From assembly GCF_021474425.1 (NCBI RefSeq), contig NZ_JAKEIP010000016.1:1-64000 (forward strand): DNA of 64,000 nt, given 5' to 3'. The position numbers and the translations under genes were made by a program. Of this stretch, positions 1,551 through 18,451 are shown piece after piece. The first letter of the stretch is position 1, and each line of letters starts with the position of its first letter. The notes under the pieces were generated by a model, which was not told the DNA's origin, made no database searches, and saw nothing but the letters and a program-made list of their open reading frames with translations. Origin of the DNA: Streptomyces muensis. Lineage in GTDB: Bacteria; Actinomycetota; Actinomycetes; Streptomycetales; Streptomycetaceae.

Positions 1551-3676
1551 GCACCACCGCTGAGCTTCTGAAGGGCGCAGCCGAGCTGTTTCCCGACGAG
1601 GTAGTGACGTCCGCGCACGTACGTCACCTCGACCTGCCGTTCGGCGCCGGGCGCTTCGCCCTGATCACGCTGGACAACGGCTTCGACCACACCAAGCCGA
1701 CCACCTTCGGCCCGGCCTCGCTGGCGAACCTGAACGCCGCCATCGACCAGGTCGAGAAGGAGGCCGCGGACGGCGGCATCGTCGGCGTCGGCATCACCGG
1801 CAAGCCGTTCATCTTCGCCGTCGGCGCCGACCTCAAGGGCGTCGAGCTGCTGAAGGAGCACAAGGACGCGCTGGCCATCGGCAAGGGCGGCCACGAGGTC
1901 TTCAAGCGCCTCGCGGGCCTCGCCGTGCCGACCTTCGCGTACTACAACGGCGCCGCCATGGGCGGTGGCGTCGAGGTCGGTCTGCACTGCAAGTACCGGA
2001 CCGTCAGCAAGGCGCTCCCGGCCTTCTCGCTCCCCGAGGTCTTCCTCGGCCTGGTGCCCGGCTGGGGCGGCTGCACGATCCTGCCGAACCTGATCGGCGC
2101 CGACAAGGCCGTCTCGGTGATCATCGAGAACAGCCTCAACCAGAACAAGCAGCTCAAGGGCCAGCAGGTCTTCGATCTGGGCATCGCCGACGCCATCTTC
2201 GAGGGCGCCGACTTCCTGGAGCAGTCGCTGATCTGGACCGCCCAGGTGGTCAAGGGCGACGTCGAGGTCGACCGTCCGGTGATCGACCGCGGTGAGGCCT
2301 GGGACCAGGCCGTCGCCAAGGGCCGCTTCATCGCGGACAGCAAGGTGCACGGCGCCGCTCCGGCCGCCTACCGTGCCCTCGACATCATCGCCGCCGCCAA
2401 GAACGGTGACCTCCAGCAGGGTTACGACGCCGAGGACAAGGCGCTCGCCGACCTGATCATGGGTGGTGAACTGCGCTCCGGCATCTACGCCTTCAACCTG
2501 GTGCAGAAGCGCGGCAAGCGTCCGGCCGGGGCGCCGGACAAGAACCTGGCGCGTCCGGTCACCAAGGTCGGTGTCGTCGGCGCCGGTCTGATGGCCTCCC
2601 AGCTCGCGCTGCTCTTCCTGCGCCGCCTGGAGGTGCCGGTCGTGCTGACCGACATCGACCAGGAGCGCGTCGACAAGGGTGTGGGCTACGTCCACGCCGA
2701 GATCGACAAGCTGCTCGGCAAGGGCCGTATCAACCAGGACAAGGCCAACCGCCTCAAGGCGCTGGTGAGCGGTGTCCTGGACAAGGCCGAGGGCTTCTCC
2801 GACGCGGACTTCGTCATCGAGGCCGTCTTCGAGGAGATCGGCGTCAAGCAGCAGGTGTTCGCGGAGGTCGAGGCGGTCGCCCCGGCGCACGCCATCTTCG
2901 CCACCAACACCTCCTCGCTGTCGGTCTCCGAGATGGCGTCGAAGCTGAAGCACCCCGAGCGGGTCGTGGGCTTCCACTTCTTCAACCCGGTGGCCGTGCT
3001 CCCGCTGCTGGAGATCGTCCGCGGCGAGCAGACGGACGACGCCTCCCTGGCGACCGCCTTCGCCGTCGCCAAGAAGCTGAAGAAGACCGCGGTGCTGACG
3101 AAGGACGCCCCGGCGTTCGTCGTGAACCGCATCCTCACCCGCTTCATGGGCGAGATCCAGAACGTCATCGACGAGGGCACGCCGGTCGAGGTCGCGGAGA
3201 AGGCGGTGGAGCCCCTGGGCCTGCCGATGTCTCCTCTCGTCCTGCTGGAGCTGGTCGGTCCCGCGATCGGTCTGCACGTCTCGGAGACCCTCAACCGGGC
3301 CTTCCCGGACCGCTTCACCGTCTCCCCGAACCTCGCGGCCGTCGTCAAGGCGGGCAAGCGCGGCTTCTACGTCTACGACTCCGGGAAGCCGGAGCTGGAC
3401 CCGGAGGTCGCCGCGCTGCTGAAGCAGGGCGACTCCGTCCTGACCGAGGAGCAGGTGCGTGACCGCGTCCTCGACGCCGTCGCCCAGGAGATCGGGCTCA
3501 TGCTCGACGAGGGCGTCGTCGCCGAGGCCCAGGACATCGACCTCTGCCTGATCACGGGCGCCGGCTGGCCCTTCCACCTGGGCGGCATCACGCCGTACCT
3601 GGACCGCGAGGGTGTCTCCGAGCGCGTGAACGGCAAGAAGTTCCTGGCACCGGGCGTGGCGAGCGTCCCGGCGTAA
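1547..3676 (+). CDS. fadB: 3-hydroxyacyl-CoA dehydrogenase / enoyl-CoA hydratase, FadB-type
   Basis: Bifunctional beta-oxidation enzyme of 709 residues. The N-terminal part (about 1-290) is a crotonase fold with the oxyanion-hole segments FAVGADLKG and GAAMGGGVEVGLHC. It is followed by an NAD-binding Rossmann domain starting at VGVVGAGLMA (about residue 343), the HFFNP motif of hydroxyacyl-CoA dehydrogenases, and two C-terminal helical 3HCDH domains. It hydrates trans-enoyl-CoA and oxidises the 3-hydroxyacyl-CoA, passing 3-ketoacyl-CoA to the thiolase encoded directly upstream. Start GTG 1547 overlaps the fadA stop by two bases and has GGAGG at 1536-1540. A strong hairpin follows the stop. 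Confidence 0.95.
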   Translation: MSTTAELLKGAAELFPDEVVTSAHVRHLDLPFGAGRFALITLDNGFDHTKPTTFGPASLANLNAAIDQVEKEAADGGIVGVGITGKPFIFAVGADLKGVELLKEHKDALAIGKGGHEVFKRLAGLAVPTFAYYNGAAMGGGVEVGLHCKYRTVSKALPAFSLPEVFLGLVPGWGGCTILPNLIGADKAVSVIIENSLNQNKQLKGQQVFDLGIADAIFEGADFLEQSLIWTAQVVKGDVEVDRPVIDRGEAWDQAVAKGRFIADSKVHGAAPAAYRALDIIAAAKNGDLQQGYDAEDKALADLIMGGELRSGIYAFNLVQKRGKRPAGAPDKNLARPVTKVGVVGAGLMASQLALLFLRRLEVPVVLTDIDQERVDKGVGYVHAEIDKLLGKGRINQDKANRLKALVSGVLDKAEGFSDADFVIEAVFEEIGVKQQVFAEVEAVAPAHAIFATNTSSLSVSEMASKLKHPERVVGFHFFNPVAVLPLLEIVRGEQTDDASLATAFAVAKKLKKTAVLTKDAPAFVVNRILTRFMGEIQNVIDEGTPVEVAEKAVEPLGLPMSPLVLLELVGPAIGLHVSETLNRAFPDRFTVSPNLAAVVKAGKRGFYVYDSGKPELDPEVAALLKQGDSVLTEEQVRDRVLDAVAQEIGLMLDEGVVAEAQDIDLCLITGAGWPFHLGGITPYLDREGVSERVNGKKFLAPGVASVPA

Positions 3677-3689
3677 CGCTCCGCTGTGC

Positions 3690-3734
3690 ACGCCGGTGCC
3701 CCGCACGCCGAGTTGGTGTGCGGGGCACCGGCGT
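3690..3734. terminator. Convergent terminator hairpin after fadB
   Basis: A perfect 17-bp stem (3690-3706 with 3718-3734) and an 11-base loop lie between the converging fadB gene and the minus-strand gene at 3781. There is no T-tract, as is common in Streptomyces. It could stop transcription from both sides. Confidence 0.75.
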
Positions 3735-3780
3735 TGTCGGTAGGCAGGGCTGAAATACCGGGACCGGGATTTCAGGCGCC

Positions 3781-4863: not shown

Positions 4864-4882
4864 TCCGGCCCCGGGTCTCTCC

Positions 4883-5408
4883 TTACGGGCTGTCAGCGCC
4901 GAGGTACGTCATGGCGCCGATTCCGCCGCGGTACGCCCAATGGAAGTCACCCGGCTTTCGAACGCGCACCACCAACTCGGGATCGTCCCCGCGGACGTTC
5001 AGATGGTGCCCGGTATCGAATGCGACGCGCAGCCCACCGGAGGTGAATGCCACCGCCGACACCACGGTGGCACCCACCAGTTCTTCCCATTGCTCGGCAG
5101 GGACCGATAGCGCACCGGGAGCGGATGCCGGCCCGTGCGTCAGATCCGCCGTTCCGTCGAATGTCAGCTCCGCGCCGTGGCGGATCCGCTGTCTGCCGGA
5201 CCGCGGTGACCAGAAGGCCTCGCAGCGCCAGGATCCACGAGGACGGGTCGGGCCGGAACTCCTGGCTCAGGGCGTCGAGGGCCTCTCTCACCTCCTCCTC
5301 GCGACAACCGCTCCGCAAGTACAACTCCCTGGACCTCAGGAACGCGCAGACGGCATCGAGCGTTCGGCGCCACTTCGCCGCGTCACCGCTTCCAGAAACC
5401 AGGTGCAT
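4883..5408 (-). pseudogene. Frameshifted immunity-like gene (DUF6188-like)
   Basis: Two overlapping minus-strand frames read as one protein. From ATG 5408 one frame gives MHLVSGSGDAAKWRR and continues to SSWILALRGLLVTAV. The next frame then carries GAELTFDGTADLTHGP, WEELVGATVVSAVAF, LRVAFDTGHHLNV and the end at 4883. The second part has the layout of the small DUF6188-type domain found in putative immunity proteins beside Rhs toxins. A one-base loss (or two-base gain) around 5170-5230 would explain the split. The first frame alone stays open to 4947 but becomes Arg-rich and unlike a protein. It lies downstream of the toxin/immunity terminator, so it needs its own promoter. A sequencing error is the main alternative. 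Confidence 0.55.
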
Positions 5409-5456
5409 ACAGTCATCGCCATCCGTAGTCTCCCCGGAATTGTCAGTACTGGAAAA

Positions 5457-5495
5457 GCGGCCCCCTGCTCCCGAGTACGGGGAGCAGGGGGCCGC
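5457..5495 (-). terminator. Terminator of the LamG-Rhs-immunity operon
   Basis: A perfect 16-bp stem (5457-5472 with 5480-5495), a 7-base loop, and on the minus strand TTTTCC directly after the stem. It lies 19 bases past the stop of the immunity candidate and is the most canonical intrinsic terminator in the window. Confidence 0.9.
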
Positions 5496-5514: not shown

Positions 5515-5973
5515 TCAGATGGTCTCCGGCGGGAATCCGTGGTGGGCTCCACCACGGACGAAAGCCCGCCAGGCCTCGAAGTTCCCCGAGCAGTCGGGGA
5601 ACACCTCGAGCCGGAAGCCCTGCTCCCAGGCCACGGTGAGCTCGCCCGCCGCGCCGACGGTCACACCGTCGACGGAGGGACGGAGCTGTCCGAGAATCTT
5701 GTTGATCTTCGTGGCGCGAGCGTCGTAGACCATGCGAAATTCATCGAAGGCCTGCTCTCCCGCGCCCTTTTGCGGGTACCGCATGTCCGCGGATCCCAGG
5801 ATGATCTTCGCGTCGTGCACGATCCGGAACGGGCACTGCATGTGGACCATGACCTCCTCGCCGTCGGGGCCGCGGAACTCGACGATGCCCATGTCCACGG
5901 CCCTGCCGACGGAGTGGGCGACGGCGCCCGTCAGGATTCGGGTGATCTCGTCCACCCGCAGCTCAGCAGCCAC
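5515..5973 (-). CDS. Candidate immunity protein for the Rhs toxin
   Basis: Cytosolic-looking protein of 152 residues with no signal peptide and a mixed alpha/beta pattern (start MAAELRVDEITRILTGAV; later HMQCPFRIVHDAKIILGSAD and GVTVGAAGELTVAWEQG). I do not recognise a named family, although the second half resembles the small beta-rich domain seen in DUF6188-type neighbours of toxins. The ATG at 5973 overlaps the last 11 bases of the Rhs gene, so the two are translationally coupled, as is usual for a polymorphic toxin and its cognate antidote. A strong terminator follows. The immunity role rests on position, size and coupling. Confidence 0.8.
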   Translation of the reverse strand: MAAELRVDEITRILTGAVAHSVGRAVDMGIVEFRGPDGEEVMVHMQCPFRIVHDAKIILGSADMRYPQKGAGEQAFDEFRMVYDARATKINKILGQLRPSVDGVTVGAAGELTVAWEQGFRLEVFPDCSGNFEAWRAFVRGGAHHGFPPETI

Positions 5974-8900
5974 CGAACAGCCCCCTGCCTTCCTCGACGA
6001 TGCGATGGTAGCCGTAGCCCTGGCCGGTGATCCGGTCGTGCAGCATGCGGCGCTCCGCGGGGGTGACGTCGCGTCCGAGTTCGCCCTCGATCTTCTTCAG
6101 CGCGTCCCTGAACTCCTTGTTCTCCGCCTGGTTGCCACGCGGGGAGTGCTTGCCGTCGTCGTCCAGATCACCGCCGTCCCAGGTCTCCTTGATTTCCGCC
6201 AGGCCCTTTTCCCAGTCGAACCCACCGTCGTCGTTGTGGACGAGGAGCGGGGTCGCACCGGCGACGACGTAGTACGTGTGGATGTCGTCGATGGTGAGGT
6301 CGTGCGTGCGCTGGAGCTTGTGGTACTCGCGGGTCTTCTCGACCCGGACCGTGCCGCCGTCGACGGTGCGCAGCGTCATACCCGGTACGAGGTGACCGGC
6401 GTCGACCCAGGTGCCCTCGGAGGGCGACCAGAACGGGTGCGTCGTCGTGGACGTCAGTGACTGTGCGCCCCGGACACCCTCGCGGGAGACCGTGAGGTCG
6501 ATGAAGTGCTTGTCGTCCTTGGTGATGATGGTGGCGACGACGGTCCGCGTCGTGGTCAGTCCGCTCTCCGGGTCGGTGACCACGATCTTGTCGCCGAGCC
6601 TGACGTCCTCGATCGGCTTGCTGGACCCGTCGGACATCAGCACGTGCGTGCCCGGCGTGAAGCTGTGCCGGCCGCCTCCGACGAGGCACTGGATGGGTAC
6701 GGAGTCCGTCTTCTTCAGGGCCGCCTTGAAGCCCTTGAAGACGACCTTGGCGCCCTTGCCCAGCAGTCCGGTGCCCACCGCGATGCCTGCGTCGATCGCC
6801 GCGGCCTTGCAGGCGCTGCCTGAGCCCCTGATGCAGCCGATGTAGTCGTCGACGCCCAGGACCTCCAGGATCCCCGGCCCGTTCTGGTCGCCGAACCAGC
6901 CGAGCTTGCCCACCGCGGAGCAGAACTCCGAGCCCATGTTGTTCAGGCCTGTGCAGCGGGCTCGCGCCCAGTTCTGGAGGTTGTGCTGGTAGTCCAGGCG
7001 CTCGTGGTAGTACGGGAAGTGCTCGGCGAGTTCCGCCTGGGTCGGGATGTAGACGCCCTGGATGGTGATCGAGTCACCCTTGGGCGCGATGACGATCGGC
7101 TTCTTGCCGTAGGTGCCGTTCCTCCTCGCCTCCTCCGACATCTTGACCGCGGTGTCGTAGCAGGACTGCGTCCGCTGACAGTTGTTGGAGGTGCCGTCGA
7201 TGACGCCGTCGGTGTCGCCTTCGACGCCCGCGCAGATTCCGTCCGCTCCGCCGCCCGGCGCACCGTGGATGCAGCCGAGGCCGTCGGGGTCGCTGAAGGT
7301 GAGCGGGCTGTTGTTGCTGTAGGCGTAGGCGTTCAGTGCCTGCGGGTCGCCCGGGGTGAGCAGCGGGTCGACCGAGAGGAACCGGCCGGTCGCCGGGTCG
7401 TACTCACGGGCGCCGAGGTGCTGCAATCCGGTGGACTCGGTGTCGTCCACGCCGCCGACGAAGCCCTGGACACCGGGCCAGTTGCTCGGCTCGGTGCCGC
7501 GGGCACCGCCGAAGGGCAGCATGCGACGCTGCGTCAGCTGCTGGCTTCCCGCGTCGACCGCCAGCTGTCCCGTGCCGAGGTGGTCGGCGATGGTGAACGA
7601 GACGGAGCCGTCGTTGTCGATCACGGCCTGGTGCCCACTGCCGAGGTCCAGGGTGCGGGTGGCCTCGGCGGTGGTGCCGCCCTTGGCCACGGTGATCCGG
7701 GTGGCGCCGAGGTAGAGCGTGTTCTCCTTCGAGGTGCGGGCGATGAGCCGGTTGCCGGCCGCGTCGTAGACGTACTCGGTGATGTCGTCCGGCTTGCCCT
7801 CGACCGGCTTGGTCACCTTGACCAGATGGCCTTCGGCGTCCCAGTCGAGGTCCTGGGTGGTGCCCGCGAGGGTGCGGGTGTCGGTGTTGCCGACGACGTC
7901 GTAGCCGTAGGAGTCCTGCGCGGTGCCGCCGGGACCGGTCTGGGTGACCGTGTTCACGGCGTGCGGACGCGGCTTGCCCGGGTCCGGGTAGTCGTAGGTG
8001 CGCACGGTGTTCTTCGCCGTGTCACCGGTGACGTCGTGCAGGGTCTCGGTCTCCCGGTTGCCCACCTTGTCGTAGGTGTAGGAGTGCCAGTACGGCGCGG
8101 GGCCGCCGACCGTCTGCCCGCTCGGTGCCGTGGCGCAGGTGGTCGTGGACTGGGTCCAGGCCGTGGTCATGCGGCGCAGGTGGTCGTAGTCGAAGCACTG
8201 CGTGTCCGTGCCGGAACGGGAGACGTCCGAGACGGACAGGACGTTGCCCATCTGGTCGTAGCCGTAGGTGTTGTGACGGTCGACGCCCGCCACGTCCTGA
8301 CGGTCCACCCGGGAGGTGGCCAGACGCTCGGTGCCCCACTCGTAGGTGTTGGTCACCCAGGTCTTCTTGCCGCCGTTGTTCGACAGTTCGAACTGGAGCG
8401 GCCTGCCGGTGAGGCTGTAGCTGGTGGCGAAGTCGATGCCCTGGCTGCCGCTGAGCGCGATCGGCCGCTGGGTCTGGTCCTCGTAGGTGAACGCCACCGT
8501 GGTGGCGGGCAGGGCGCCGGCCGCCGGGGAGCCGGTCGTGCGGACGGAGCCGTCCACGTTGTACGCGGTGGCCGACAGATAGGTACCGGCGAGCGCTCCC
8601 TCGCTCGCGGGGATCGTCACGGTCGAGCGCAGCGGTCGGTAGAGCCGGTCGTAGGCGACGACCTTGTTGGTGTACGCCTCGGAGCCGACGTAGCGGGTGG
8701 ACTCGGCCAGGTGGCCCTTCGCGCCGCTGATGGTGTCGTAGACCCACTTGGCCCGCAGCTGGCCCGTGGCGCTGTTCTCCCGCAGCTCGGTCTGCCGGCC
8801 GAGCCCGTCGCGGACGTAGTACAGGTCGGTGGACCGGTCGTCGGAGATGGACAGGACCTGGCCACGGTCGTCGTACTCGGTGGAGCTGGGGCCCCGGTCG

Positions 8901-11900
8901 GGGTCGACGGTCGTCTTGAGGTTGCCGAGCAGGTCGTAGGTGTAACTCCAGACGTTGCCCGCCGGATCGGTCAGCTTCTCCAGTTCGCCGCGCGGGGTGT
9001 AGGTGTAGCGGGTGGTGTCGAACGCGGCTTGCTCGGAGCGGGTGTGGTGCTGGCGCAGCTCCGTGGTCCGCCCGCGGGCGTCGGTGACGGTCGTGGTCGC
9101 GGTGCCGCCCACCGGCGGGACGACCGTGGTGCGGTCGCCGCCGTAGCTCGTGCGGGTCGTGCCGAGCACCGTGCCGCCGTCGCCGTTGCCCGCGATCTGC
9201 TCGCTCACGGTCGGCCGGCCCATACCGTCGAACGTGGTGCGGGTCTGGGTCTCGACCGAGAGCGCGTCCGCGGGCTTGAACAGGGTCCGTGAGGGCGCCC
9301 CGGTGGCGTAGTAGGTGTCGAAGGTCTTGGCTGTCAGCCCGCGTTCGTCGTAGAAGGCGTCGGAGAGCAGCCGCCCGCCGTCCGGGCCAGGCTTCTGCGT
9401 CTGGCGCTGGCGCAGGAACCCGTCGTACAGGCTGTACGCGGTGACCTGGCTGCCGTTGGTGCCCAGCGCCTTGGTGGAGACCGCGACCGGCTGGCCGTCG
9501 CTGACCAGGTAGTCGAACTCGTACGTCGGGGTCAGCGTCGTCTGCCGGTCGGCCAGCCACACCTTCGAGGATCTGCCGAGCGCGTCGTAGGTGAAGGTCG
9601 TGACCTTGCCGTTGGCGTCGGTCTGGGTCAGCGGCAGGCCGCGGCGGAGGTCATGGGTGGCATAGCTGACCAGGGCCGTGGTGGCGTCCCCGGCCTTCGC
9701 CGGCGGTGTGGTCGTGGTCGTCTTCGTGACGAACCCGGTGCTCGGCGTGCGGTCGGTGGTGGTGGTACGGCCGTCCGTGCGCGCGGTGCGCACGGGGGCG
9801 CCCGTGCCGGTCACCGTGACGTTCGCGGTGAGGTCGGTGCTGGTGAGGACCCGTCCGTAGGAGTCGAAGGTCGCCCCGGACTCCAGGTAGCTGGCCGTGG
9901 TGCCGTCGTGCTTCTTCAGCAGGGCCGTGGCCGTGACGTCGCCCTTGGTCGGGGCCGCGCCGTAGGCGCCGCCGTCGTAGGCCGTGCGGACGTCGGAGAT
10001 GACCTCCTTGGAGCGGTCGACGGGGTCGGCGCAGGACTTCGCGACGGTCTCGACGCGGTCGGGCAGGCCGAGGATGTTGTCGGAGCTGTTGGTGGCGTAG
10101 GTGGTGCGGGTGCAGCGGTTGTCCGCGGCGGTGGTGTTGTCGCCGAAGTCGTCGACCTGGGTGACCCGTCCGGCCACGGTGTCGTACGAGGTGGCGGTGG
10201 AGGTGGTCCGCCAGGACGCGCCCGCCCCGTCGTCCAGGGAGGTCCAGGTCTTGGTGTGGGCGACGCCGGTGAAGTTGGCGGTGACCGTGCCCCAGTCGCG
10301 GGTCTTCTTCGCGGTCTGGTGGTACCAGGGGCGGTTCACGGTCTTGGTGAGGGCCTTGCCGCCGTTGCCGGAGTAGCCGACCGTCTTGTAGGTGGTGCCG
10401 GCGAGCGCCTCGTGGTCGGTGATGGGGTCGCCCTCGCCTTCGCCGAGGGTGACGCTGACGTTCTTGGTGCCGCCGGTCGGGGACTCGCGGTCGCCGTCCA
10501 TGCCGCGCAGGAAGTAGGAGTCGGACTGCGACTTCATCGCCGTGTCGCCGCCCTGACCGCCGGTCTTGACGCGGACGTGTCCGTAGCCGCGCCACTGGGA
10601 CCAGGTCTTGGACTTCTCCTTGGTCAGACCGTCGTCATCGTCGTAGTGCCAGGCGGCTCCGCCCAGGTACTCGTACCGGGTGACCTGGTCGGGCGCTCCA
10701 CCGGTGCGGTCGGTGCCGGTCACGGAGGTGACGACGTACTTGTTGAACCAGTGCCGCTCGGGGTCCTCCGTGGAGCTGCCGCCGATGTACTGCGGGAAGC
10801 AGCGCGTGGTGTTGGTCTGCGGGGTGGGCAGGGCGGCCCAGTCGCAGGCCGGTGCCGAGTAGTTGACGTCGATCTGGCCGCCGTACTCGTCGGCGATCGT
10901 CGACAGGCGTGACTTGATGAACGGGGCGAAGCCGTCACCGGTCTTGTCGAGCCGGTTCTCCAGCTGGGTGTAGCTGAAGGTGGTCTTCGGCAGGGTGACC
11001 GTGGGGGTGGCGGTGTGGCCAGTGTGCTGGATGGAGTCGAGCAGCAGCTGGTAGTCGATGTCGGCCATGCCCCAGCGGTGGGCCAGCTTCCAGGAGTCGA
11101 CCTTCTGGTAGGCGCCGGCGGCGTCGATGACCTGCGTGGTCACCTCGCTGAGGCGCTTGCGCGTCCAGAACGTGGGCGACAGGCGCCCGTCGTCGCAGTC
11201 CTTGCCCTCGTCGCAGTTGAGGTCCCAGGGCGTGTCGTACCAGTACGCCGAGTCGGTGGAGATGGACGAGCAGGTGGTCTGCGCGTCCGGCAGGCAGCGT
11301 TCGGCGTTGGTGAAGGTGACCTTCGCGAGCGCCGGAGTGCCGTACATCGAGGACGACTTGAGGCCGTACTGGATCTCGTCGAGGTGGCCGCCACGGGTGT
11401 AGCGGGTGTCGTCGGTGGCCTTCAGGTTGCGGCCGTAGGAGTTCTTCTCCTGGGTGTAGTAGTACGCGATGGCGTTGCCGCGCGGGTCGACGACGTAGTC
11501 GAGGTTCCAGCGCCAGGCCTGCTGGCACCAGGAGTCGGCGAAGGCGGCGGCGTGGCAGGCCTCGCCCGTGTCGTCGCCGAAGACGGGCGCGGTCCACGTG
11601 GAGTTCGTGGTCTTCTTGCCGTCGGCCCAGCCGGGCAGCCGGTGGTAGCCGAAGTAGTAGCGCACCCCGTCGGGGTCGGTGAGCCGCCAGTACTCGCCGT
11701 TGTCGTCGCCGTTGCCGCGGTTGGTGGACGTCAGCCGGGCGATCCGGGTGCCGTCGTCCTGGCGGAGCTTGAACTCGCCGTCGGTACCGGTGGGGACGAG
11801 CTCGCCGCCCTTGCCGTTGAAGCTGATGAAGGCGTTGTCGTAGCCCCAGCACAGGTCGCCGGGCTTCATGCCGTCGCTGTTCTCGACGCCGTCCTCGGCG

Positions 11901-12928
11901 CACGGCTTGTAGCGGCGCTCTATATAGCCCGGCCACATGTCGAAGCCGCTGCCGATCCAGGAGGACTGGTTGTTGGTCTCGGTGGTGCGGCCGTCGACGG
12001 AGCCGGAGGAGTAGCCGATTCCGATGCTGGGCTTCAGTCCGCCGGGCACCTCGGGGACGCCCATGTCGTAGGACCAGGCGAAGTCACCGGTGTTGAGGTT
12101 GGTCTGCCAGGTCGCGGACGGGGCGAGGGTGGTCGCCTTGTAGTCACCGGTGGCCGCGCTGTCGTCCGCGACGGCCGCGAGCACGGTCGGCTGTGCGGAG
12201 GCGATCCGCACGGACGGGGCGGTGAGCGCGCCGGCCTCCGTGTCGTTCACGGTCTCGACGGGCTTCTGGGTACGGCACTTGGCCCGCTCCGGCGTCTTCA
12301 GGACACAGGCGGGCAGCTGGACCAGGCGGAGCCGGGCGCCGTAGCCGCCGCCGTAGGCCTGTGCGAGGTCGCGGTAGTCGACGCGTACCTGGGCGGCGCC
12401 GTCGGTGAAGCCGGTGCGCTCGGGGGCGAGCGTCACGAGCAGGCCGTCGATCGCGGCCTTCTTGGTCTGCCCACGCCCGGCGAGCTCGACCCGCACGGCA
12501 CCGGCGGCACCACGTGCCTTAGCGGCGCCGACGGAGACCGGCAGCTTGCCGGCCTTCACCGGAGCCTGGGCGGCGCCGCCCTTCGCGCCCTTCGCGCTCG
12601 CCGAGCCCTTCGCGCCCTTCTGACCCGCCGGGGTCCCGGTGAGGGTCACCCGGCCCGAACCCGCCCCGGGCCACTCGGCCTTGGGCGCGGTCCGCGGGGT
12701 GCGCGGGCCGCGCTCCACCGTGCGGGGCTTGGTCTTGGCCGCGGCGCCGGCCACGGGCCGCTCCGCCTTCGGCAGGGCCGGCCGGCCCCGCCCGTCGTCC
12801 GCCACGGCTCCCGCGCCCGCCGGGGCGGTGACGCCTTGGAGCACCGTGGCGATCATGACTATTCCGGAAGCCAGCGCGGTCTTCCGTCTCCATCGGGCCG
12901 CGCGGCCCGGTTGTCCCGTATCCCTCAT
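5963..12928 (-). CDS. Rhs/YD-repeat polymorphic toxin with HINT domain
   Basis: Secreted protein of 2321 residues. Residues 1-43 form an Arg-rich signal peptide ending near AGAGAVA. A low-complexity Ala/Lys/Gly segment follows, then a long YD-repeat shell and the Rhs core end motif (YDPATGRFLSVDPL, about residue 1845). A HINT domain at about 2089-2230 begins HSFTPGTHVLMSDG and ends TPLLVHN, and the last 90 residues form a separate toxin-like tip (PRGNQAENKEF, LHDRITGQGYGY). The expected HINT nucleophile Cys is replaced by Ser or His, while the terminal His-Asn is kept, so self-cleavage is possible but unproven. Start ATG 12928 has AAGGGGAA upstream; an earlier in-frame ATG only adds Arg/Pro-rich sequence. 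It follows the LamG gene by 115 bases and overlaps the immunity candidate. Confidence 0.93.
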   Translation of the reverse strand: MRDTGQPGRAARWRRKTALASGIVMIATVLQGVTAPAGAGAVADDGRGRPALPKAERPVAGAAAKTKPRTVERGPRTPRTAPKAEWPGAGSGRVTLTGTPAGQKGAKGSASAKGAKGGAAQAPVKAGKLPVSVGAAKARGAAGAVRVELAGRGQTKKAAIDGLLVTLAPERTGFTDGAAQVRVDYRDLAQAYGGGYGARLRLVQLPACVLKTPERAKCRTQKPVETVNDTEAGALTAPSVRIASAQPTVLAAVADDSAATGDYKATTLAPSATWQTNLNTGDFAWSYDMGVPEVPGGLKPSIGIGYSSGSVDGRTTETNNQSSWIGSGFDMWPGYIERRYKPCAEDGVENSDGMKPGDLCWGYDNAFISFNGKGGELVPTGTDGEFKLRQDDGTRIARLTSTNRGNGDDNGEYWRLTDPDGVRYYFGYHRLPGWADGKKTTNSTWTAPVFGDDTGEACHAAAFADSWCQQAWRWNLDYVVDPRGNAIAYYYTQEKNSYGRNLKATDDTRYTRGGHLDEIQYGLKSSSMYGTPALAKVTFTNAERCLPDAQTTCSSISTDSAYWYDTPWDLNCDEGKDCDDGRLSPTFWTRKRLSEVTTQVIDAAGAYQKVDSWKLAHRWGMADIDYQLLLDSIQHTGHTATPTVTLPKTTFSYTQLENRLDKTGDGFAPFIKSRLSTIADEYGGQIDVNYSAPACDWAALPTPQTNTTRCFPQYIGGSSTEDPERHWFNKYVVTSVTGTDRTGGAPDQVTRYEYLGGAAWHYDDDDGLTKEKSKTWSQWRGYGHVRVKTGGQGGDTAMKSQSDSYFLRGMDGDRESPTGGTKNVSVTLGEGEGDPITDHEALAGTTYKTVGYSGNGGKALTKTVNRPWYHQTAKKTRDWGTVTANFTGVAHTKTWTSLDDGAGASWRTTSTATSYDTVAGRVTQVDDFGDNTTAADNRCTRTTYATNSSDNILGLPDRVETVAKSCADPVDRSKEVISDVRTAYDGGAYGAAPTKGDVTATALLKKHDGTTASYLESGATFDSYGRVLTSTDLTANVTVTGTGAPVRTARTDGRTTTTDRTPSTGFVTKTTTTTPPAKAGDATTALVSYATHDLRRGLPLTQTDANGKVTTFTYDALGRSSKVWLADRQTTLTPTYEFDYLVSDGQPVAVSTKALGTNGSQVTAYSLYDGFLRQRQTQKPGPDGGRLLSDAFYDERGLTAKTFDTYYATGAPSRTLFKPADALSVETQTRTTFDGMGRPTVSEQIAGNGDGGTVLGTTRTSYGGDRTTVVPPVGGTATTTVTDARGRTTELRQHHTRSEQAAFDTTRYTYTPRGELEKLTDPAGNVWSYTYDLLGNLKTTVDPDRGPSSTEYDDRGQVLSISDDRSTDLYYVRDGLGRQTELRENSATGQLRAKWVYDTISGAKGHLAESTRYVGSEAYTNKVVAYDRLYRPLRSTVTIPASEGALAGTYLSATAYNVDGSVRTTGSPAAGALPATTVAFTYEDQTQRPIALSGSQGIDFATSYSLTGRPLQFELSNNGGKKTWVTNTYEWGTERLATSRVDRQDVAGVDRHNTYGYDQMGNVLSVSDVSRSGTDTQCFDYDHLRRMTTAWTQSTTTCATAPSGQTVGGPAPYWHSYTYDKVGNRETETLHDVTGDTAKNTVRTYDYPDPGKPRPHAVNTVTQTGPGGTAQDSYGYDVVGNTDTRTLAGTTQDLDWDAEGHLVKVTKPVEGKPDDITEYVYDAAGNRLIARTSKENTLYLGATRITVAKGGTTAEATRTLDLGSGHQAVIDNDGSVSFTIADHLGTGQLAVDAGSQQLTQRRMLPFGGARGTEPSNWPGVQGFVGGVDDTESTGLQHLGAREYDPATGRFLSVDPLLTPGDPQALNAYAYSNNSPLTFSDPDGLGCIHGAPGGGADGICAGVEGDTDGVIDGTSNNCQRTQSCYDTAVKMSEEARRNGTYGKKPIVIAPKGDSITIQGVYIPTQAELAEHFPYYHERLDYQHNLQNWARARCTGLNNMGSEFCSAVGKLGWFGDQNGPGILEVLGVDDYIGCIRGSGSACKAAAIDAGIAVGTGLLGKGAKVVFKGFKAALKKTDSVPIQCLVGGGRHSFTPGTHVLMSDGSSKPIEDVRLGDKIVVTDPESGLTTTRTVVATIITKDDKHFIDLTVSREGVRGAQSLTSTTTHPFWSPSEGTWVDAGHLVPGMTLRTVDGGTVRVEKTREYHKLQRTHDLTIDDIHTYYVVAGATPLLVHNDDGGFDWEKGLAEIKETWDGGDLDDDGKHSPRGNQAENKEFRDALKKIEGELGRDVTPAERRMLHDRITGQGYGYHRIVEEGRGLFGGC

Positions 12929-13043
12929 CGTTCCCCTTGATGTGTGACAGCTCGTGTGCGGCCGGTGGCGGCCCGGGCCGGACCCGGGCGGCAGCGCGGT
13001 GCCGGCCCGTACGCGCGGGGCGACGGGCCGGCACCGCCTCCGG

Positions 13044-16000
13044 TCAGTCCGTGCCGGGTACCTCGGTGGCGACGCCCGGCATGCCCAGCGACAGATGGGC
13101 GATCTGGGAGTCGCTGAGCGCGCCCTGGAAGGCCCAGACGTCGTCGATGGCGCCGGGCCAGTACTCGCCCCACGCCCCCGCCGTGCGGGCGCGGCCGATC
13201 TGGAGTCCGCCCGTGGCCTTGTACGACAGGACGTTCTCGGACCACGACAGGCGGTCGGCGCAGGCGGTGTCGTCGGACTCGCCGTCACCGTCGTCGTCCG
13301 CGCAGGCGACCTCCTCCAGCTGCCCGTTCACATAGAGCCGGGCCTCCTTGGCGAAGCCGTCGTAGACGAGCGCCAGGTGGTTCCAGTCCCGTGCGTCGTA
13401 GAACTGCTGGTTCTCGGTGCGTACGACGGTGGCGTCCGCGGCGTCGGAGTCCGGCATCGAGATCTGCCAGCGCCCGGCGCCCGCCTCGCCCTCGGCGGCC
13501 GGTACGTGCCGGACCGCGAAGGCGCTGTTGGACGTGCCGGGTGCGCTGAGGACCGCTGCGCTGCGGGTCGGGGCACCGGCCGAGGTGGCCCAGCCCATCA
13601 CCGTGAAGCTGGCCGTCGTGTCGACGACGGGTGTCGCGGTCGCGGCGTGGTCGTCGACGCCGTCCAGCTGGAGGGCGCCGTCGTCGACCCAGGAGGCCCC
13701 GACCTGCGCGCCGCCGCCCACGGTCAGCGTCCGGTTCTCGGCGGAGGCGTCCGGGCTGGTGGCCGGGGTGCCGGTGGCCACCGTGTCCAGCAGCCAGCGG
13801 CCCTTGACCAGCGGCCGCTGCCGGAACATCTGCCGGACCTCGTCGGCGGAGAGGGGCCGGTCGAACAGGTTCACCTCGTCGATCTGCCCGGCGAAGAACG
13901 ATCCGGGCGTGCCGTCGTAGGAGCCGGCGCCGATCTGCACCGCGCCGCCCGCGTACCAGCCGGCCTGGAGATCCGTCTCCCCCGCCTTGACGCCGTTGAC
14001 GTACAGGGTGAGCTTGTTCGCGACGGTGTCGTGCACGCCCACCAGGTGGGTCCAGGTGTCGCCGAACGCGGTCTGCCCGTCGGCCTGCATCGCCCGGATC
14101 GGGGTGGCGGTCGAGGTGTCCGACGAGTACTGGTTGACCGCCCAACGGTCGTACGTCTTGGAGTAGTAGAGCTCCAGACCCGGCCGGTGGGTGCCCGTCT
14201 GGGTCACGATGACGGCGGCGTGGTCGGGCTTGGTTTTGGGCAGCTTCGCCCAGGCCGAGACCGCGAAGCTGCGCTGGTTGTTCAGCAGCGGCCGCCCGGT
14301 GGAGGCGTAGTCGTCGGTGCCGTCGAGGGTCAGGGCCTTGCCCGCGATGCCGGGCTGCCCTGACGTGAGGCCTCCGGAGAACGTCGCGGACGCGACCTCC
14401 GCGGCACCGGTCAGGACGGTCGTCGGGTTGCCGGCGCTGTCCGTGGGCTGCTCGTCCAGCGGGAACACGGCGCGTGCGCTGCGGCCCGAGATGAGCGAGT
14501 CCTTGCCGTAGAGCCGGGTCACCTCGCCGGACGACACCGGCTTGTCGAAGATCTGCAGCTCGTCGATGGCACCGGGGAAGAACGACCCCGGCTGTCCGCT
14601 GTAGGAGCCGGCGCCGATCTGGAGCCCGCGCCGCGCGTCCCACGGCGAGTCGTACGTCGTGGTCCCGGCCAGCTGGCCGTTGACGTACAGGTTCATCTCG
14701 TTGTAGGTCGCGCTGTAGGAGCCCACCAGATGGGTCCATTCACCGGCCTTGACTCCGCCCGGCGCCGCCTGCATGGCCCGTACGATGCCGGCGCTCGCGC
14801 TGTCGGACGTGTACTGATTGAACGCCCAGCGGTCGTAGCTCTTCGAGTAGTACAGCTCGAAGCCCGGGGAGTGGTTGCCGGGCTGCGCCGCGATGATCGC
14901 CGCGTGGTCCGGCATCGCCGACAGCTTCGCCCATGCCGAGACGGCGAACCCGGTGGAGGTGTCCACGGTGGGGATGTCGGTGACCGCGTAGTCGTCGACG
15001 CCGTCGAACGACGCCGCGTTCCCCTTGGCCCCGGCCACGCCGAGGGTGACACCGCCGCGCAGTTCGGCGGTGCGTGGCGGCGCCGAGCCCTTGGCCGTGC
15101 TCGCGCCGGCGCCCTCGTCCAGCTGCCAGGTCGCCCGCTCCGGCTGCCCGGCCTTGACCCGGAACTGGTAGGTGCGGATCTCGCTGTCGTTCCCCGCCGA
15201 GTCGAACGCCTGGGCGGTGATGAAGTTCAGCCCGGGCTTGGCGGGCAGCAGGGGTGCCGTCTTCAGCGCACCGGAGGACGTGGTCAAGGTGTTCTTCGAA
15301 GTCGGGTCGCCGTTGATGCCGAACCAGTACTTCGTCACGTCGGTCTCGGGCGAGTCGATGTCGAAGAAGCCGTACTTGCCGACGCCGTCGTACCAGGGGT
15401 CCTCGGGGTTCTCCGGGTCGGAGGCCGGGTACTCGCCGGATGTGATCGTCGGGGCCTTGGGCACCTTGGTGTCGTAGACGAAGTAACAGCCCGTGGGGTC
15501 ACCGGTGTACGACCACGGCGAGTACTGGGCGCCGTCGTAGGAGCGCGCGTACCAGTGGACCGTCTTGTTCGCGGTGACCGAGGGCAGCGCGATGGAGAAG
15601 CTGGACCCGGACTTCTTGTACGAGGTCAGCGCCGGCTTCCAGCGGGCGATGAGGCCCTTGCCGTCACCGGAGTCCCACTTGGCCTGGAACTGGACGGCGA
15701 TGTTGTCGCCGTCGGGGTCGGTGACGTTGTTCGCGTAGACCTTGCCCAGGGTGCGCACGCGGGCCGGAGCGGAGGGCTTCTTGCAGGTGCCGCCGTACTC
15801 CATCGTCAGCTGGGACGTCTTGATCTGGGACGGCGGGCGGTTGTACTTGACCCGCAGGAACGCGTCGTCCGAGAAGCGCTTCCAGGCGTATTCGTCCGTC
15901 TCGCTGGACGCCCGCAGACCGAAGGTCATCGTCGACCACTTGCCGTTCGCGGCCTGCTGGACGGCGGAGCGCACGTCGAACTCCGCGTCCTTGGCGGCGC

Positions 16001-17366
16001 AGCCGTCATAGCCGTAGGCGAAGCTCTCCGTCTTGAGGTGGTCGATCCAGAAGTCCGAGTTGTCCTGGGAGTTCCAGGTGGTCGACGAGCTGATGCCCTT
16101 GGTGCGCCACAGCTGCACCCCGCGGTCCGAGCACGACGCCGACCAGGTGTTGCGCACGACGAACTCGGCGGACAGGATGCTCCGGCCCGCGAACTTGGAG
16201 ACGGGGATGCGGTAGAAGAGCCGCTTGGTGTCGTACGGCTGGCAGTAGTGCCAGCCGCAGTAGCCCATGCCGGCGGTGGACTCGCCGTTGAACTTCCACT
16301 GCGGCGACGACGCCCAGTACTTGGACACCATCGTCCACGCGGACCGCTTGGGCGAGTACCACTGCGGGTCGATGTAGACGGGGTACTCGGTGTCCGGGCC
16401 CTTCAGCACGTCCGCGTCCGGCTTGAGCACCAGCTCGCGTCCGGTGGCGGGCAGTTCCACGCCTACGGGTGCGAGCTTCCCGGACTCGGCGGCGTCGGTC
16501 CCGTCGCCGTTTCCGCCCGGCGGGGCGGCCTTGGCGTCCCCGGAGGCGACCGTGGCCCTGGCACGCTCCACGCCGCCGGCCGACTTGGCCGTGGCGGTCG
16601 CGCTCTTGCCGGGGCTGGAGTCCCACATGACGGGCCGCGGCGCCTCGAACACCGCGCTGCCGGCGCCCTCGTCGACGGCTTCCAGACCGCCCGAGGGCGT
16701 CTCGCGTACGTCCAGGTCCTGAGCGGACAGCTTCAGCCGCAGCTCCTTCAGCGCCGGACTGGCCGCCGCCTCGGCGGACTTGACGACGAGCAGCTGGGTG
16801 AAGCCGTCCTCCTGCGCGCCCATGCGCAGGTCCACGTCCGGAAGAACGTTCCGGTAGGTCGCGGTCTCCCCGTCGAGTTCCGGCGCCGGGAGTTTCGTCG
16901 GCCAGGACAGGGCGAGCTCACGTCCGGCGCGCTCCATGCGCACCAGGGGCTGGTCGCCGCCGCCGGAGAACTCCAGCCGTACCGTGGTCGCCCCGGGGGC
17001 GACCGTGCCGTCGGCTCGCTTGGCGAGGCCGGTGTCGATCGGCTTCCACGCGCCGTCGACCCGGGCGCGTACGGGGCGCAGGTGCTCCCGCGCCTCGAGT
17101 TTGCCGTCCGGTGTCGCGTACACCTCGCTGCTCTCGGCGCGCAGCGACACGATCTCCACGGCCGTGCCGGTCCGCTTGGCCTTGGCCAGCGCCTCTGCCT
17201 CGGACAACGTCTCGGTGTCCGTGCTCTGTCCGGCCGTCTGCCGCGGTGCCGCCGCCGATGCGGCCGTGGTCACCGCCGGTGGCAGTGCGACCACCAGGCC
17301 CAGCCCGAGTGCCACGGACAGCGCGCCGCCCAGGACGCGTCTTCGTGACTTCCCTTCGGTGCTCAC
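13044..17366 (-). CDS. Secreted LamG-domain protein, partner of the Rhs toxin
   Basis: Exported protein of 1440 residues. It has a signal peptide (about 1-42, positive start then VLGGALSVALGLGLVVAL) and a long N-terminal region typical of actinobacterial Rhs neighbours (YRNVLPDVDLRM and following). Three concanavalin/LamG jelly-roll domains begin near residues 744, 964 and 1187, each with the signature FDGVDDYA, LDGTDDYA or LDGVDDHA. LamG folds bind glycans or proteins, so it may display or dock the toxin at the cell surface; that is inference. The chosen GTG 17366 is preceded by GGGGGGTGAGG. It is the first gene of the toxin operon and is divergent from the dehydrogenase gene. Confidence 0.9.
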   Translation of the reverse strand: MSTEGKSRRRVLGGALSVALGLGLVVALPPAVTTAASAAAPRQTAGQSTDTETLSEAEALAKAKRTGTAVEIVSLRAESSEVYATPDGKLEAREHLRPVRARVDGAWKPIDTGLAKRADGTVAPGATTVRLEFSGGGDQPLVRMERAGRELALSWPTKLPAPELDGETATYRNVLPDVDLRMGAQEDGFTQLLVVKSAEAAASPALKELRLKLSAQDLDVRETPSGGLEAVDEGAGSAVFEAPRPVMWDSSPGKSATATAKSAGGVERARATVASGDAKAAPPGGNGDGTDAAESGKLAPVGVELPATGRELVLKPDADVLKGPDTEYPVYIDPQWYSPKRSAWTMVSKYWASSPQWKFNGESTAGMGYCGWHYCQPYDTKRLFYRIPVSKFAGRSILSAEFVVRNTWSASCSDRGVQLWRTKGISSSTTWNSQDNSDFWIDHLKTESFAYGYDGCAAKDAEFDVRSAVQQAANGKWSTMTFGLRASSETDEYAWKRFSDDAFLRVKYNRPPSQIKTSQLTMEYGGTCKKPSAPARVRTLGKVYANNVTDPDGDNIAVQFQAKWDSGDGKGLIARWKPALTSYKKSGSSFSIALPSVTANKTVHWYARSYDGAQYSPWSYTGDPTGCYFVYDTKVPKAPTITSGEYPASDPENPEDPWYDGVGKYGFFDIDSPETDVTKYWFGINGDPTSKNTLTTSSGALKTAPLLPAKPGLNFITAQAFDSAGNDSEIRTYQFRVKAGQPERATWQLDEGAGASTAKGSAPPRTAELRGGVTLGVAGAKGNAASFDGVDDYAVTDIPTVDTSTGFAVSAWAKLSAMPDHAAIIAAQPGNHSPGFELYYSKSYDRWAFNQYTSDSASAGIVRAMQAAPGGVKAGEWTHLVGSYSATYNEMNLYVNGQLAGTTTYDSPWDARRGLQIGAGSYSGQPGSFFPGAIDELQIFDKPVSSGEVTRLYGKDSLISGRSARAVFPLDEQPTDSAGNPTTVLTGAAEVASATFSGGLTSGQPGIAGKALTLDGTDDYASTGRPLLNNQRSFAVSAWAKLPKTKPDHAAVIVTQTGTHRPGLELYYSKTYDRWAVNQYSSDTSTATPIRAMQADGQTAFGDTWTHLVGVHDTVANKLTLYVNGVKAGETDLQAGWYAGGAVQIGAGSYDGTPGSFFAGQIDEVNLFDRPLSADEVRQMFRQRPLVKGRWLLDTVATGTPATSPDASAENRTLTVGGGAQVGASWVDDGALQLDGVDDHAATATPVVDTTASFTVMGWATSAGAPTRSAAVLSAPGTSNSAFAVRHVPAAEGEAGAGRWQISMPDSDAADATVVRTENQQFYDARDWNHLALVYDGFAKEARLYVNGQLEEVACADDDGDGESDDTACADRLSWSENVLSYKATGGLQIGRARTAGAWGEYWPGAIDDVWAFQGALSDSQIAHLSLGMPGVATEVPGTD

Positions 17367-17542: not shown

Positions 17543-18451
17543 ATGACCGACAAGCTCACCGTGAGCGTCCTGGGCACCGGCATCATGGGCGCCGCGATGG
17601 CCCGCAACCTCGCGAGGGCCGGGCACACCGTCCGCGTCTGGAACCGCACCCGCGCCAAGGCCGAGCCCCTGGCCGCCGACGGCGCCCTCGTCTCCGGCAC
17701 CCCGGGCGAGGCGGTGCGGGGCGCCGACGTCGTCCTGACCATGCTGTACGACGGTCCCGCGACGCTGGACGTCATGCGCGAGGCGGCGCCCGCGCTGCGC
17801 CCGGGTGCCGCGTGGGTGCAGTCGACGACCGCGGGCATCGAGGGCATCGCCGACCTGGCCGGCTTCGCGCGCGAGCACGGTCTCGTCTTCTACGACGCCC
17901 CGATGCTCGGCACCCGTCAGCCCGCCGAGGCCGGTCAGCTCACCGTGCTGGCGGCGGGCCCCGTCGAGGGCCGGCCGACGGTGACGCCGGTGTTCGACGC
18001 GGTGGGCGCCCGTACGGTGTGGACCGGGGAGGACGGCGGGGCCGGCAGCGCGACCCGCCTGAAGCTGGTCGCCAACAGCTGGGTGCTGGCGGTGACGAAC
18101 GCGGCCGGTGAGGTGCTGGCGCTGTCCAAGGCCCTGGACGTGGACCCGCGGCGGTTCTTCGAGGTGATCGACGGCGGCCCGCTCGACATGGGGTATCTGC
18201 GCGCCAAGACCGGGCTGGTGCTGAACGACGGGCTGTCCCCGGCCGCGTTCGCGGTGCGTACGGCCGCGAAGGACGCGCGGCTGATCGTGGAGGCGGGTGA
18301 GCGGTACGGCGCCCGCCTGGACGTGGCCGCGGCGAGCGCGCAGCGGTTCGAACGGGCGGACGCGCAGGGCCACGGGGACGAGGACATGGCGGCGGCGTAC
18401 TTCGCCAGCTTCGAGGAGGGGGACGGCAAGGAGAAGGAAGAGGGGCAGTAG
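17543..18451 (+). CDS. NAD(P)-dependent beta-hydroxyacid dehydrogenase
   Basis: Oxidoreductase of 302 residues in the 3-hydroxyisobutyrate / glyoxylate-reductase family. It has an N-terminal Rossmann domain with VLGTGIMGAAMARNL, the substrate-binding stretch FYDAPMLGTRQPAEAG where the family has DAPVSGG, and a helical C-terminal domain with the catalytic Lys in RLKLVANSW (about residue 174). The substrate cannot be read from the sequence. Start ATG 17543 has AGGAAG about nine bases upstream; an in-frame start at 17435 would add 36 residues across the inverted repeat. The small gene 29 bases downstream is probably cotranscribed. The C-terminus ends in an acidic/Lys tail. Confidence 0.9.
   Translation: MTDKLTVSVLGTGIMGAAMARNLARAGHTVRVWNRTRAKAEPLAADGALVSGTPGEAVRGADVVLTMLYDGPATLDVMREAAPALRPGAAWVQSTTAGIEGIADLAGFAREHGLVFYDAPMLGTRQPAEAGQLTVLAAGPVEGRPTVTPVFDAVGARTVWTGEDGGAGSATRLKLVANSWVLAVTNAAGEVLALSKALDVDPRRFFEVIDGGPLDMGYLRAKTGLVLNDGLSPAAFAVRTAAKDARLIVEAGERYGARLDVAAASAQRFERADAQGHGDEDMAAAYFASFEEGDGKEKEEGQ

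What the first reader, a model, noticed from the sequence alone, without database searches (positions are those of the whole stretch)
5515..17366. Self-contained LamG-Rhs-immunity toxin operon with a terminator
Seen: a three-LamG secreted protein, a 2321-residue Rhs protein, an 11-base overlapping small gene and a canonical terminator, all on one strand. Known: Rhs/YD proteins with HINT and variable tips are polymorphic toxins. Inference: the LamG protein is a dedicated surface partner, making a two-component secreted delivery system independent of type VI or VII machinery. The block separates genes that I recall as neighbours in S. coelicolor, so it is probably an acquired island.
Basis: partly seen in the sequence, partly recalled or inferred. 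Interest (0 to 1): 0.75.

Follow-up and report, generated by a model that had tools for sequence, protein, structure and literature searches.

The report
Two-gene Rhs toxin with lectin partner
A Streptomyces operon encodes a secreted Rhs-shell toxin with a swappable toxic tip, a putative immunity gene and a separate sugar-binding protein that usually sits beside this kind of toxin gene in related bacteria, which suggests a weapon whose aiming part and warhead part can be exchanged independently.

Summary
In detail: on the minus strand lie a secreted three-LamG protein, a 2321-residue Rhs/HINT protein, an 11-nt-overlapping small gene and a strong terminator. What pairs with Rhs is not LamG but a ~490-residue N-terminal module (an unassigned beta domain plus a CBM96/DNRLRE domain); LamG is one of several C-terminal ends. 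Pairs are tandem or divergent; some single polypeptides hold both parts. Partner and Rhs co-vary beyond within-genome shuffles. Tips are highly polymorphic. This tip matches no family library searched but lies beside its putative immunity gene in 6 of 7 genus genomes that have it. The block fills a slot that is 1.3-1.9 kb long in 7 of 8 comparable relatives. Best reading: a WapA-like toxin split into two secreted proteins. Contact, secretion and killing are untested.

The parts
13044..17366 (-). Partner (LamG) protein, 1440 aa from GTG 17366 (1471 from ATG 17459): signal peptide (by eye), N-module, two FnIII/PKD-like domains, three LamG
16605..17249 (-). Partner domain 1 (P0001 residues 71-285): confident beta-rich model, no clear PDB match; candidate Rhs-docking domain (inference)
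15837..16352 (-). Partner DNRLRE/CBM96 domain (about residues 370-541); fold match to chondroitin-sulfate- and alginate-binding CBMs
   Evidence: 8wab Z 17.9, rmsd 2.5, 161 aligned; 7vbo Z 14.7, rmsd 2.9, 154 aligned
15147..15839 (-). Two FnIII/PKD-like domains of the partner (about residues 541-771); modest fold matches
   Evidence: Z about 9-10
14520..15005 (-). LamG domain 1
13836..14324 (-). LamG domain 2
13098..13664 (-). LamG domain 3 (matched in two pieces)
5963..12928 (-). Rhs polymorphic toxin, 2321 aa: signal peptide (by eye), Rhs shell, core motif DP...DPDG, PT-HINT, tip
7277..7516 (-). Rhs_assc_core (TIGR03696)
6233..6688 (-). Pretoxin HINT with Cys 2201, TTTH and C-terminal HN (catalytic roles recalled)
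5966..6232 (-). Toxin tip, about 89 aa; no match in Pfam, NCBIfam, PADLOC or PDB; two weak PHROG matches (E 0.2, 0.28) taken as chance
5515..5973 (-). Putative immunity protein, 152 aa (DUF6188 at E 0.0029, below cut-off), overlaps the Rhs stop by 11 nt
5453..5495 (-). Intrinsic terminator: 16-bp stem, 7-nt loop, T tract
1475..3676 (+). Left flank: 3-hydroxyacyl-CoA dehydrogenase family gene
17543..18451 (+). Right flank: 3-hydroxyisobutyrate-dehydrogenase-like gene, divergent from the operon

Best explanation
A secreted polymorphic toxin of the Rhs kind, made of two exported proteins instead of one. The Rhs protein folds outside the producer into a shell that holds its C-terminal tip, which the HINT domain and the Rhs-core protease cut free. 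The partner does in trans what the N-terminal wall-binding fragment does in WapA: its constant N-module (domain 1 plus a CBM96 domain) belongs with the Rhs shell, probably by docking on it, and its exchangeable lectin-like end (here three LamG) binds envelope glycans, so the particle is held at, or aimed to, a cell surface. The tip enters a competitor; the overlapping small gene protects the producer. Shown by sequence: gene content, domains, pairing, co-variation of the pair, tip polymorphism, tip-immunity linkage, single-chain versions. Inferred: export, docking, glycan target, processing, entry and killing.
For: Own genome: 3 of 3 Rhs-core loci have the partner beside them. 41 genomes: 64 of 88 Rhs-subfamily places have the N-module within 12 kb: 25 tandem partner-first, 37 divergent, 1 tandem Rhs-first, 1 convergent. 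Named genomes: 77 of 80. From the partner's side, of 103 loci 63 have a separate Rhs neighbour and 15 carry N-module and an Rhs-like match in one frame (strong in 2, L098 and L101; E 3e-7 to 1e-23 in 13). Single chains: L101, 3056 aa with CBM96, DUF6531, LamG, 14 RHS stretches and an endonuclease tip; also L098, L100, L095. Partner-Rhs distance correlation 0.836 for 59 pairs; within-genome shuffles mean 0.37, maximum 0.65, 0 of 2000 reach it; within genome and orientation class mean 0.56, maximum 0.78, 0 of 2000. 42 tip clusters on 1 shell cluster in 72 Rhs ORFs; known toxins in up to 11 of 55 ends scanned. Tip followed directly by the immunity homologue in 6 of 7 genus genomes with the tip, and on a Caballeronia plasmid. 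The single-chain analogue is described for S. suis WapA-CT1 (PMC12704120; passages and the Discussion read).
Against: No interaction, secretion or killing data. Linked genes can co-vary by being inherited together without touching. 24 of 88 Rhs-subfamily places have no module within 12 kb: seven begin at a contig end; of seven subfamily loci among the 20 read, two have a LamG neighbour without detectable module (L162, L165), two are cut (L150, L166) and three show no partner (L149, L163, L164). Among the 44 listed Rhs frames of 1990 aa or more of any subfamily only 18 have the module near. 13 of 103 module loci show no Rhs and the small-gene family occurs without the tip in 6 of 12 genomes. 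Across the phylum the module is in 10 of 149 genomes. Tip and small gene have no known biochemical family.
Confidence: 0.66

Rival explanations
1. The Rhs toxin works alone, like WapA; the partner is an independent adhesin or matrix protein that is merely co-inherited on the same acquired block.
For: Co-inheritance alone would give adjacency and co-variation; 13 of 103 module loci show no Rhs; three subfamily Rhs loci show no partner (L149, L163, L164).
Against: The pair is kept in tandem and divergent layouts and as single chains. The Rhs protein here has no recognised wall-binding domain of its own. Rhs frames of 1000-1990 aa rarely have the module near (2 of 96 listed).
Confidence: 0.17
2. 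The complex is a surface or developmental structure of the hypha (adhesion, matrix, spore) and the tips are remnants rather than weapons.
For: Recognised partner domains are adhesive; 25 of 72 Rhs have no HINT by my search, and some Nonomuraea ends look low-complexity.
Against: 42 tip clusters on one shell cluster, nucleases, a deaminase and Fic among the ends, and a tip-immunity pair that recurs on different scaffolds and in another phylum.
Confidence: 0.08
3. The toxin acts on eukaryotes (amoebae, insects, plants), the lectins binding eukaryotic glycans; fold relatives of the CBM bind chondroitin sulfate and alginate.
For: CBM fold matches; Tc-type Rhs shells act on animals (established).
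Against: A co-encoded immunity candidate is what anti-bacterial toxins need and strictly anti-eukaryotic ones usually lack (established reasoning). The genomic surroundings were not searched for host-association genes.
Confidence: 0.07

Closest known systems
WapA / Gram-positive Rhs toxins (B. subtilis; S. suis WapA-CT1, PMC12704120)
   Same: Signal peptide, DNRLRE domain, Rhs shell, variable CT with downstream immunity candidate; in S. suis the N-terminal wall-binding fragment is reported to be separated from the shell by cleavage
   Different: Here the wall-binding/lectin part is a separate gene with its own signal peptide; LamG or other ends instead of LysM; no SecF-like or SrtB gene among the three genes of the block
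Streptomyces umbrella toxins UmbA/UmbB/UmbC (PMC11062931)
   Same: Secreted multi-protein polymorphic toxin of Streptomyces with a constant domain plus variable lectins on a separate protein; the best PDB sequence match of P0002 is 8w20, an entry of that paper, over the HINT region (E 3.9e-35)
   Different: Scaffold is an Rhs shell, not ALF repeats; no UmbA trypsin-like or UmbB-like protein in the block
Polymorphic toxins with N-terminal laminin-G (Zhang et al. 2012, PMC3482391)
   Same: The paper notes laminin-G domains usually at the N-termini of complete T2SS toxins and proposes anchoring to the producer's wall (passage seen)
   Different: There the domain is in the same chain; the two-gene form is not described in the passages seen
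Tc toxins TcB-TcC and T6SS Rhs effectors
   Same: Rhs shell with enclosed C-terminal toxin (PDB sequence matches 6l7i TccC2, 8qjc, 8h8b)
   Different: No TcA-like injector in the block, no PAAR; own signal peptide

Membership tests
Polymorphic toxin system | Conserved delivery part with highly variable C-terminal toxin domain | tested here: met
   1 shell cluster versus 42 tip clusters in 72 complete Rhs ORFs of L169-L248; at least one tip (L177, 6 residues) is a truncated end
Polymorphic toxin system | Downstream cognate immunity gene | tested here: met
   Tip and immunity homologue adjacent in 6 of 7 genus genomes with the tip, of 246 searched; pair also in Caballeronia. Neutralisation not tested
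Rhs proteins | RHS/YD repeats and Rhs core domain | tested here: met
   RHS_repeat 1.5e-13, Rhs_assc_core 1.4e-15; PDB Rhs shells matched
WapA | Wall-binding N-terminal region on the same polypeptide as the Rhs shell | tested here: not met
   No such domain reported in P0002; the DNRLRE-containing module is in the separate partner
WapA | Sec signal peptide | tested here: inconclusive
   Reads as a signal peptide by eye in both proteins, and in partner and Rhs of the 12 loci printed (12 of the 80); no predictor
Umbrella toxin | ALF repeats on the toxin protein | tested here: not met
   No ALF family in P0002 at E up to 1 (that Pfam holds an ALF model is recalled)
Type VI Rhs effector | PAAR or similar N-terminal T6SS domain | tested here: not met
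   None reported in P0001-P0003
Type VII (LXG/WXG) toxin | N-terminal LXG/WXG/LDXD domain | tested here: not met
   None reported in P0001-P0003
Tc toxin | TcA-like injector subunit and TcB-like SpvB domain over cut-off | tested here: not met
   SpvB only 17.8 bits, cut-off 22; no such gene among the three of the block
CBM96 | CBM96/DNRLRE domain | tested here: met
   NF033679 over cut-off; fold matches 8wab Z 17.9 and 7vbo Z 14.7. Pfam CBM96 itself is not reported for P0001 but is for L101, L075 and L032

The most novel reading that the evidence does not exclude
A widespread actinobacterial class of secreted two-protein Rhs toxin particles, polymorphic at both ends: a constant Rhs shell with swappable warheads and a constant docking module with swappable lectins, an umbrella-toxin-like division of labour reached independently on an Rhs scaffold. 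The unassigned, best conserved partner domain 1 would be a docking domain for Rhs shells.
Probability: 0.45. Interest if true: 0.82.

Novelty: new variant of a known kind. Interest (0 to 1): 0.64.

Why it matters
How Gram-positive Rhs toxins of over 300 kDa pass the cell wall is not identified (so stated in PMC12704120, passage seen). A natural two-gene split separates the shell from the binding part, so each can be deleted, tagged or swapped on its own; this makes docking, wall passage and target choice directly testable. It would also add a second class of secreted protein toxin to Streptomyces beside umbrella particles, and give a working hypothesis for at least 589 encoded relatives of the partner.

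Tried and rejected
Toxin tip: Pfam, NCBIfam, PADLOC, PHROGs and PDB gave no usable match; its biochemical activity stays unassigned. Domain 1 alone: best Z 5.2 among Foldseek's candidates, below what unrelated models typically give, so no fold is claimed; a missing match does not show a new fold. The plain Foldseek list for residues 71-800 has only low TM-scores normalised by the model and was not used beyond the CBM. LamG as pairing determinant: rejected. A count of downstream ORFs of 80 aa or more (44 of 45) is not used: no control was made and high-GC DNA is full of such frames. Foreign base composition or a tRNA in the window: not seen. The 10.3-kb stretch in the same slot of G007 is unresolved. 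Paper searches for the two-gene form found no description; the library holds open-licence papers only, and of the hits I opened four (PMC3482391, PMC11062931, PMC12704120 by passages, the last also its Discussion; PMC13018210, bacterial teneurins, by outline, abstract and passages).

Limits of the counts. The 88/64 count holds one likely duplicate (G019 C2 and C3, same coordinates). The Rhs list was cut at 150 rows; its bins are 0 of 10 (under 1000 aa), 2 of 96 (1000-1990) and 18 of 44 (1990 or more). The 80 named loci are the best of at least 589 and so favour close, tandem relatives. In one search, 62 pairs were given and 3 dropped as short (L051, L057, L081); L029 was not given. Searches used 33 divergent and 22 tandem partners chosen for complete frames; LamG counts there come from a narrow profile and are lower bounds (it misses the LamG that Pfam finds in L101 and L032). 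One search scanned the window and 54 of the 72 ends. In the match list lower rows were cut, so flank neighbours could be missed.
Full report
OBSERVATION. The finding is real. On the minus strand the window carries a protein with a DNRLRE domain and three LamG domains (17366-13044), a 2321-residue Rhs protein with RHS repeats, Rhs core and pretoxin HINT (12928-5963), a small gene that overlaps the Rhs stop by 11 nt (5973-5515), and a 16-bp terminator hairpin. Both large proteins start with what reads as a signal peptide; this is by eye.

PAIRING TEST. In the window's own genome all 3 Rhs-core loci have, directly next to them, a LamG protein that shares the window protein's N-terminal 36-560 region; in the stretches read around the eight other LamG loci neither that region nor an Rhs was found. 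In 41 related genomes the N-terminal module is found in 34 genomes and the Rhs subfamily (query: P0002 about 390-670) at 88 places in 30 genomes. Of these 88, 64 have the module within 12 kb: 25 tandem with the partner first, 37 divergent, 1 tandem with Rhs first, 1 convergent; 24 have none. With 104 module places in about 364 Mb (sizes), about 0.6 of 88 would be expected by chance. Of the 24, seven begin at a contig end. I read 20 loci of large Rhs without a module nearby: 7 belong to this subfamily over its full length, of which two (L162, L165) have a divergent LamG protein whose module my profile misses, two (L150, L166) are cut and three (L149, L163, L164) show no partner; the other 13 match only in part (12) or not at all (L168). 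Among the 150 Rhs rows listed, of any subfamily, the module is near in 0 of 10 frames under 1000 aa, 2 of 96 of 1000-1990 aa and 18 of 44 of 1990 aa or more. In an independent set of named genomes (best 80 of at least 589 relatives; Streptomyces, Nonomuraea, Actinomadura, Micromonospora, Streptosporangium and others) 77 of 80 have the Rhs beside the partner, 75 of them tandem with the partner first; of the 3 others two are cut by the contig end and one, Nonomuraea cavernae L247, shows none. In a phylum-wide sample the module (E up to 1e-20) is in 10 of 149 genomes.

FROM THE PARTNER'S SIDE. Of 103 loci examined, 63 have a separate Rhs gene near the module; 15 have the module and an Rhs-like match in one reading frame (strong in L098 and L101; E 3e-7 to 1e-23 in the other 13); 5 are giant Rhs frames in which the module was seen only weakly; 7 are cut by contig ends; 13 show no Rhs (three of these, L066, L077 and L083, on a short contig or at a contig start). 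Some of the 13 end in other domains, such as DUF6973 (L075), so the module also serves in single-gene proteins.

SINGLE-CHAIN VERSIONS. A 3056-residue protein (L101) carries CBM96, DUF6531, LamG, 14 RHS stretches and an endonuclease tip in one chain. L098 has DUF6531, LamG, RHS repeats and an endonuclease; L100 has DUF6531, LamG and RHS repeats (its end is not in the stretch); L095 has disaggregatase-type repeats, RHS repeats and an endonuclease. Others are less clear: L073 shows only one RHS stretch and L092 no RHS repeat by Pfam. Thus parts that are two genes in the window are one chain elsewhere. A similar order is described for S. suis WapA-CT1: an unknown N-terminal domain, DNRLRE, LysM, DUF6531, Rhs and CT, with cleavage into a wall-binding fragment, Rhs fragments and toxin (PMC12704120; passages and the Discussion read).

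CO-VARIATION. For 59 partner-Rhs pairs the distance matrices correlate at 0.836. Shuffling among pairs of the same genome gives mean 0.37 and maximum 0.65 (0 of 2000 reach 0.836); shuffling only within genome and orientation class gives mean 0.56 and maximum 0.78 (0 of 2000). Each partner goes with its own Rhs. This shows a unit of inheritance; contact is an inference.

ANATOMY OF THE PARTNER. A model of residues 71-800 is confident (pLDDT 85.4, 51 rows). The DNRLRE part, residues about 370-541, matches a chondroitin-sulfate-binding CBM (8wab, Z 17.9, rmsd 2.5, 161 aligned) and an alginate-binding CBM (7vbo, Z 14.7, rmsd 2.9, 154 aligned); two FnIII/PKD-like domains follow, with modest matches (Z about 9-10). 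Domain 1, modelled alone (pLDDT 88.0), has no clear match (best Z 5.2). Mean column identity in 51 rows is 53% for domain 1 against 44% for residues 71-800. The C-terminal end varies: 55 partners (33 divergent, 22 tandem) form 1 cluster by module but 9 by their last 250 residues, the largest with 32. Of 7 LamG-poor divergent partners scanned, one has ricin-B lectin plus LamG, three FG-GAP repeats, one a B_lectin match below cut-off, two nothing.

ANATOMY OF THE TOXIN. The Rhs shell matches solved Rhs, TccC2 and teneurin chains by sequence, and the HINT region is closest to 8w20 of the umbrella-toxin paper (E 3.9e-35). The HINT carries Cys 2201, TTTH and a C-terminal HN, and the core motif DP...DPDG starts at 1974; their catalytic roles are recalled. 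In 72 complete Rhs ORFs the shells form 1 cluster and the last 110 residues 42 clusters, at least one being a truncated end; HINT was found in 47 of 72. Among 55 ends scanned (window and 54 of the 72), 41 show PT-HINT and up to 11 a known toxin: Ntox21 (3), Ntox24 (2), and one each of HNH-EHHH, DddA-like, ribonuclease, HNH, Fic and GIY-YIG. Such toxins act inside cells (established), so the tip would have to enter the target.

THE WINDOW'S TIP AND ITS IMMUNITY. The tip occurs in 7 of 246 genus genomes and the small-gene family in 12 of 246; in 6 of the 7 the two are adjacent (G099 with a weak tip match, E 1.3e-4), in G245 no small gene was found, and in 6 of the 12 the small gene stands without the tip. 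G223 and G069 have the whole operon (L129, L130); in G099 the tip relative ends another kind of Rhs; in G120 and G242 the Rhs frames are in pieces. A tip relative with an immunity relative directly after it lies on a Caballeronia plasmid (the final E-values there include these sequences in training; they had entered at E below 1e-3). No library family explains the tip.

ISLAND. The two flank genes lie within 15 kb of each other in 8 of 80 other genus genomes. In 7 of them the distance is 1252-1908 bases (G083, G077, G022, G079, G065, G001, G011), in G007 10326, in the window 13867. The difference to the seven matches the operon's length. In G069 the operon lies on another contig than the best matches of both flanks. 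So insertion in this lineage is likely; composition (67-75% GC, like its surroundings) and the absence of a tRNA in the window give no further sign.

MECHANISM. Best reading: a WapA-like toxin divided into two exported proteins. Shown: domains, pairing, co-variation, tip polymorphism, tip-immunity linkage, single-chain equivalents. Inferred: export, docking of the N-module on the shell, glycan binding by LamG and CBM96, release of the tip, entry, killing. Zhang et al. (PMC3482391, passages) propose that N-terminal laminin-G domains anchor toxins to the producer wall; the umbrella toxins (PMC11062931, passages) carry lectins thought to engage the target. The present data do not decide between the two. 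The variety of partner ends is what target choice would produce, but this is an inference.

NOVELTY. Rhs polymorphic toxins and fused LamG toxins are known. The conserved two-gene form, with a constant module and exchangeable ends on both proteins, was not found in the paper searches named under Tried and rejected.

Noticed in passing
G000 contigs C141 and C227 (L012, L013): The same genome carries two further partner-Rhs tandem pairs; the window's tip does not match them.
   Followed up: partly
window 3677-5450: Stretch between the left flank gene and the terminator; the three ORFs tested there have no Pfam match at E up to 0.001; about 1.3-1.9 kb also lies between the flanks in relatives.
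   Followed up: no
G007:C1:7403001-7413327: Another genome has about 10.3 kb between the same two flank genes; none of the module or Rhs places listed falls in it, so it may be a different insert at the same place.
   Followed up: no
L101, L098, L100, L095: Giant single-chain Rhs proteins with DUF6531 and LamG or DNRLRE-type domains; three (L101, L098, L095) carry an NS_2-type endonuclease near the end.
   Followed up: partly
L163:7747-15483: Rhs of this subfamily without a recognised partner but with a LamG-like stretch inside the Rhs chain itself (residues about 1534-1694).
   Followed up: no
L092:3778-10428: Single-chain module-DUF6531 protein ending in a prokaryotic phospholipase A2 domain.
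   Followed up: no
L075, L077, L079, L083, L085: Short (895-1044 aa) module proteins without Rhs seen; two were scanned: L075 ends in DUF6973, L077 has a weak DUF7910 match. Possibly single-gene secreted effectors using the same module.
   Followed up: no
L249:4485-5644 (Caballeronia sp. NK8 plasmid pNK81): Tip relative at the end of a 227-aa ORF with the immunity relative directly after it, far outside actinobacteria.
   Followed up: partly
L247 (Nonomuraea cavernae): Partner with LamG but no Rhs in the 21 kb held.
   Followed up: no
L183, L207, L219, L240: Partner or Rhs frames broken into pieces in these assemblies; decay or sequencing error not distinguished.
   Followed up: no
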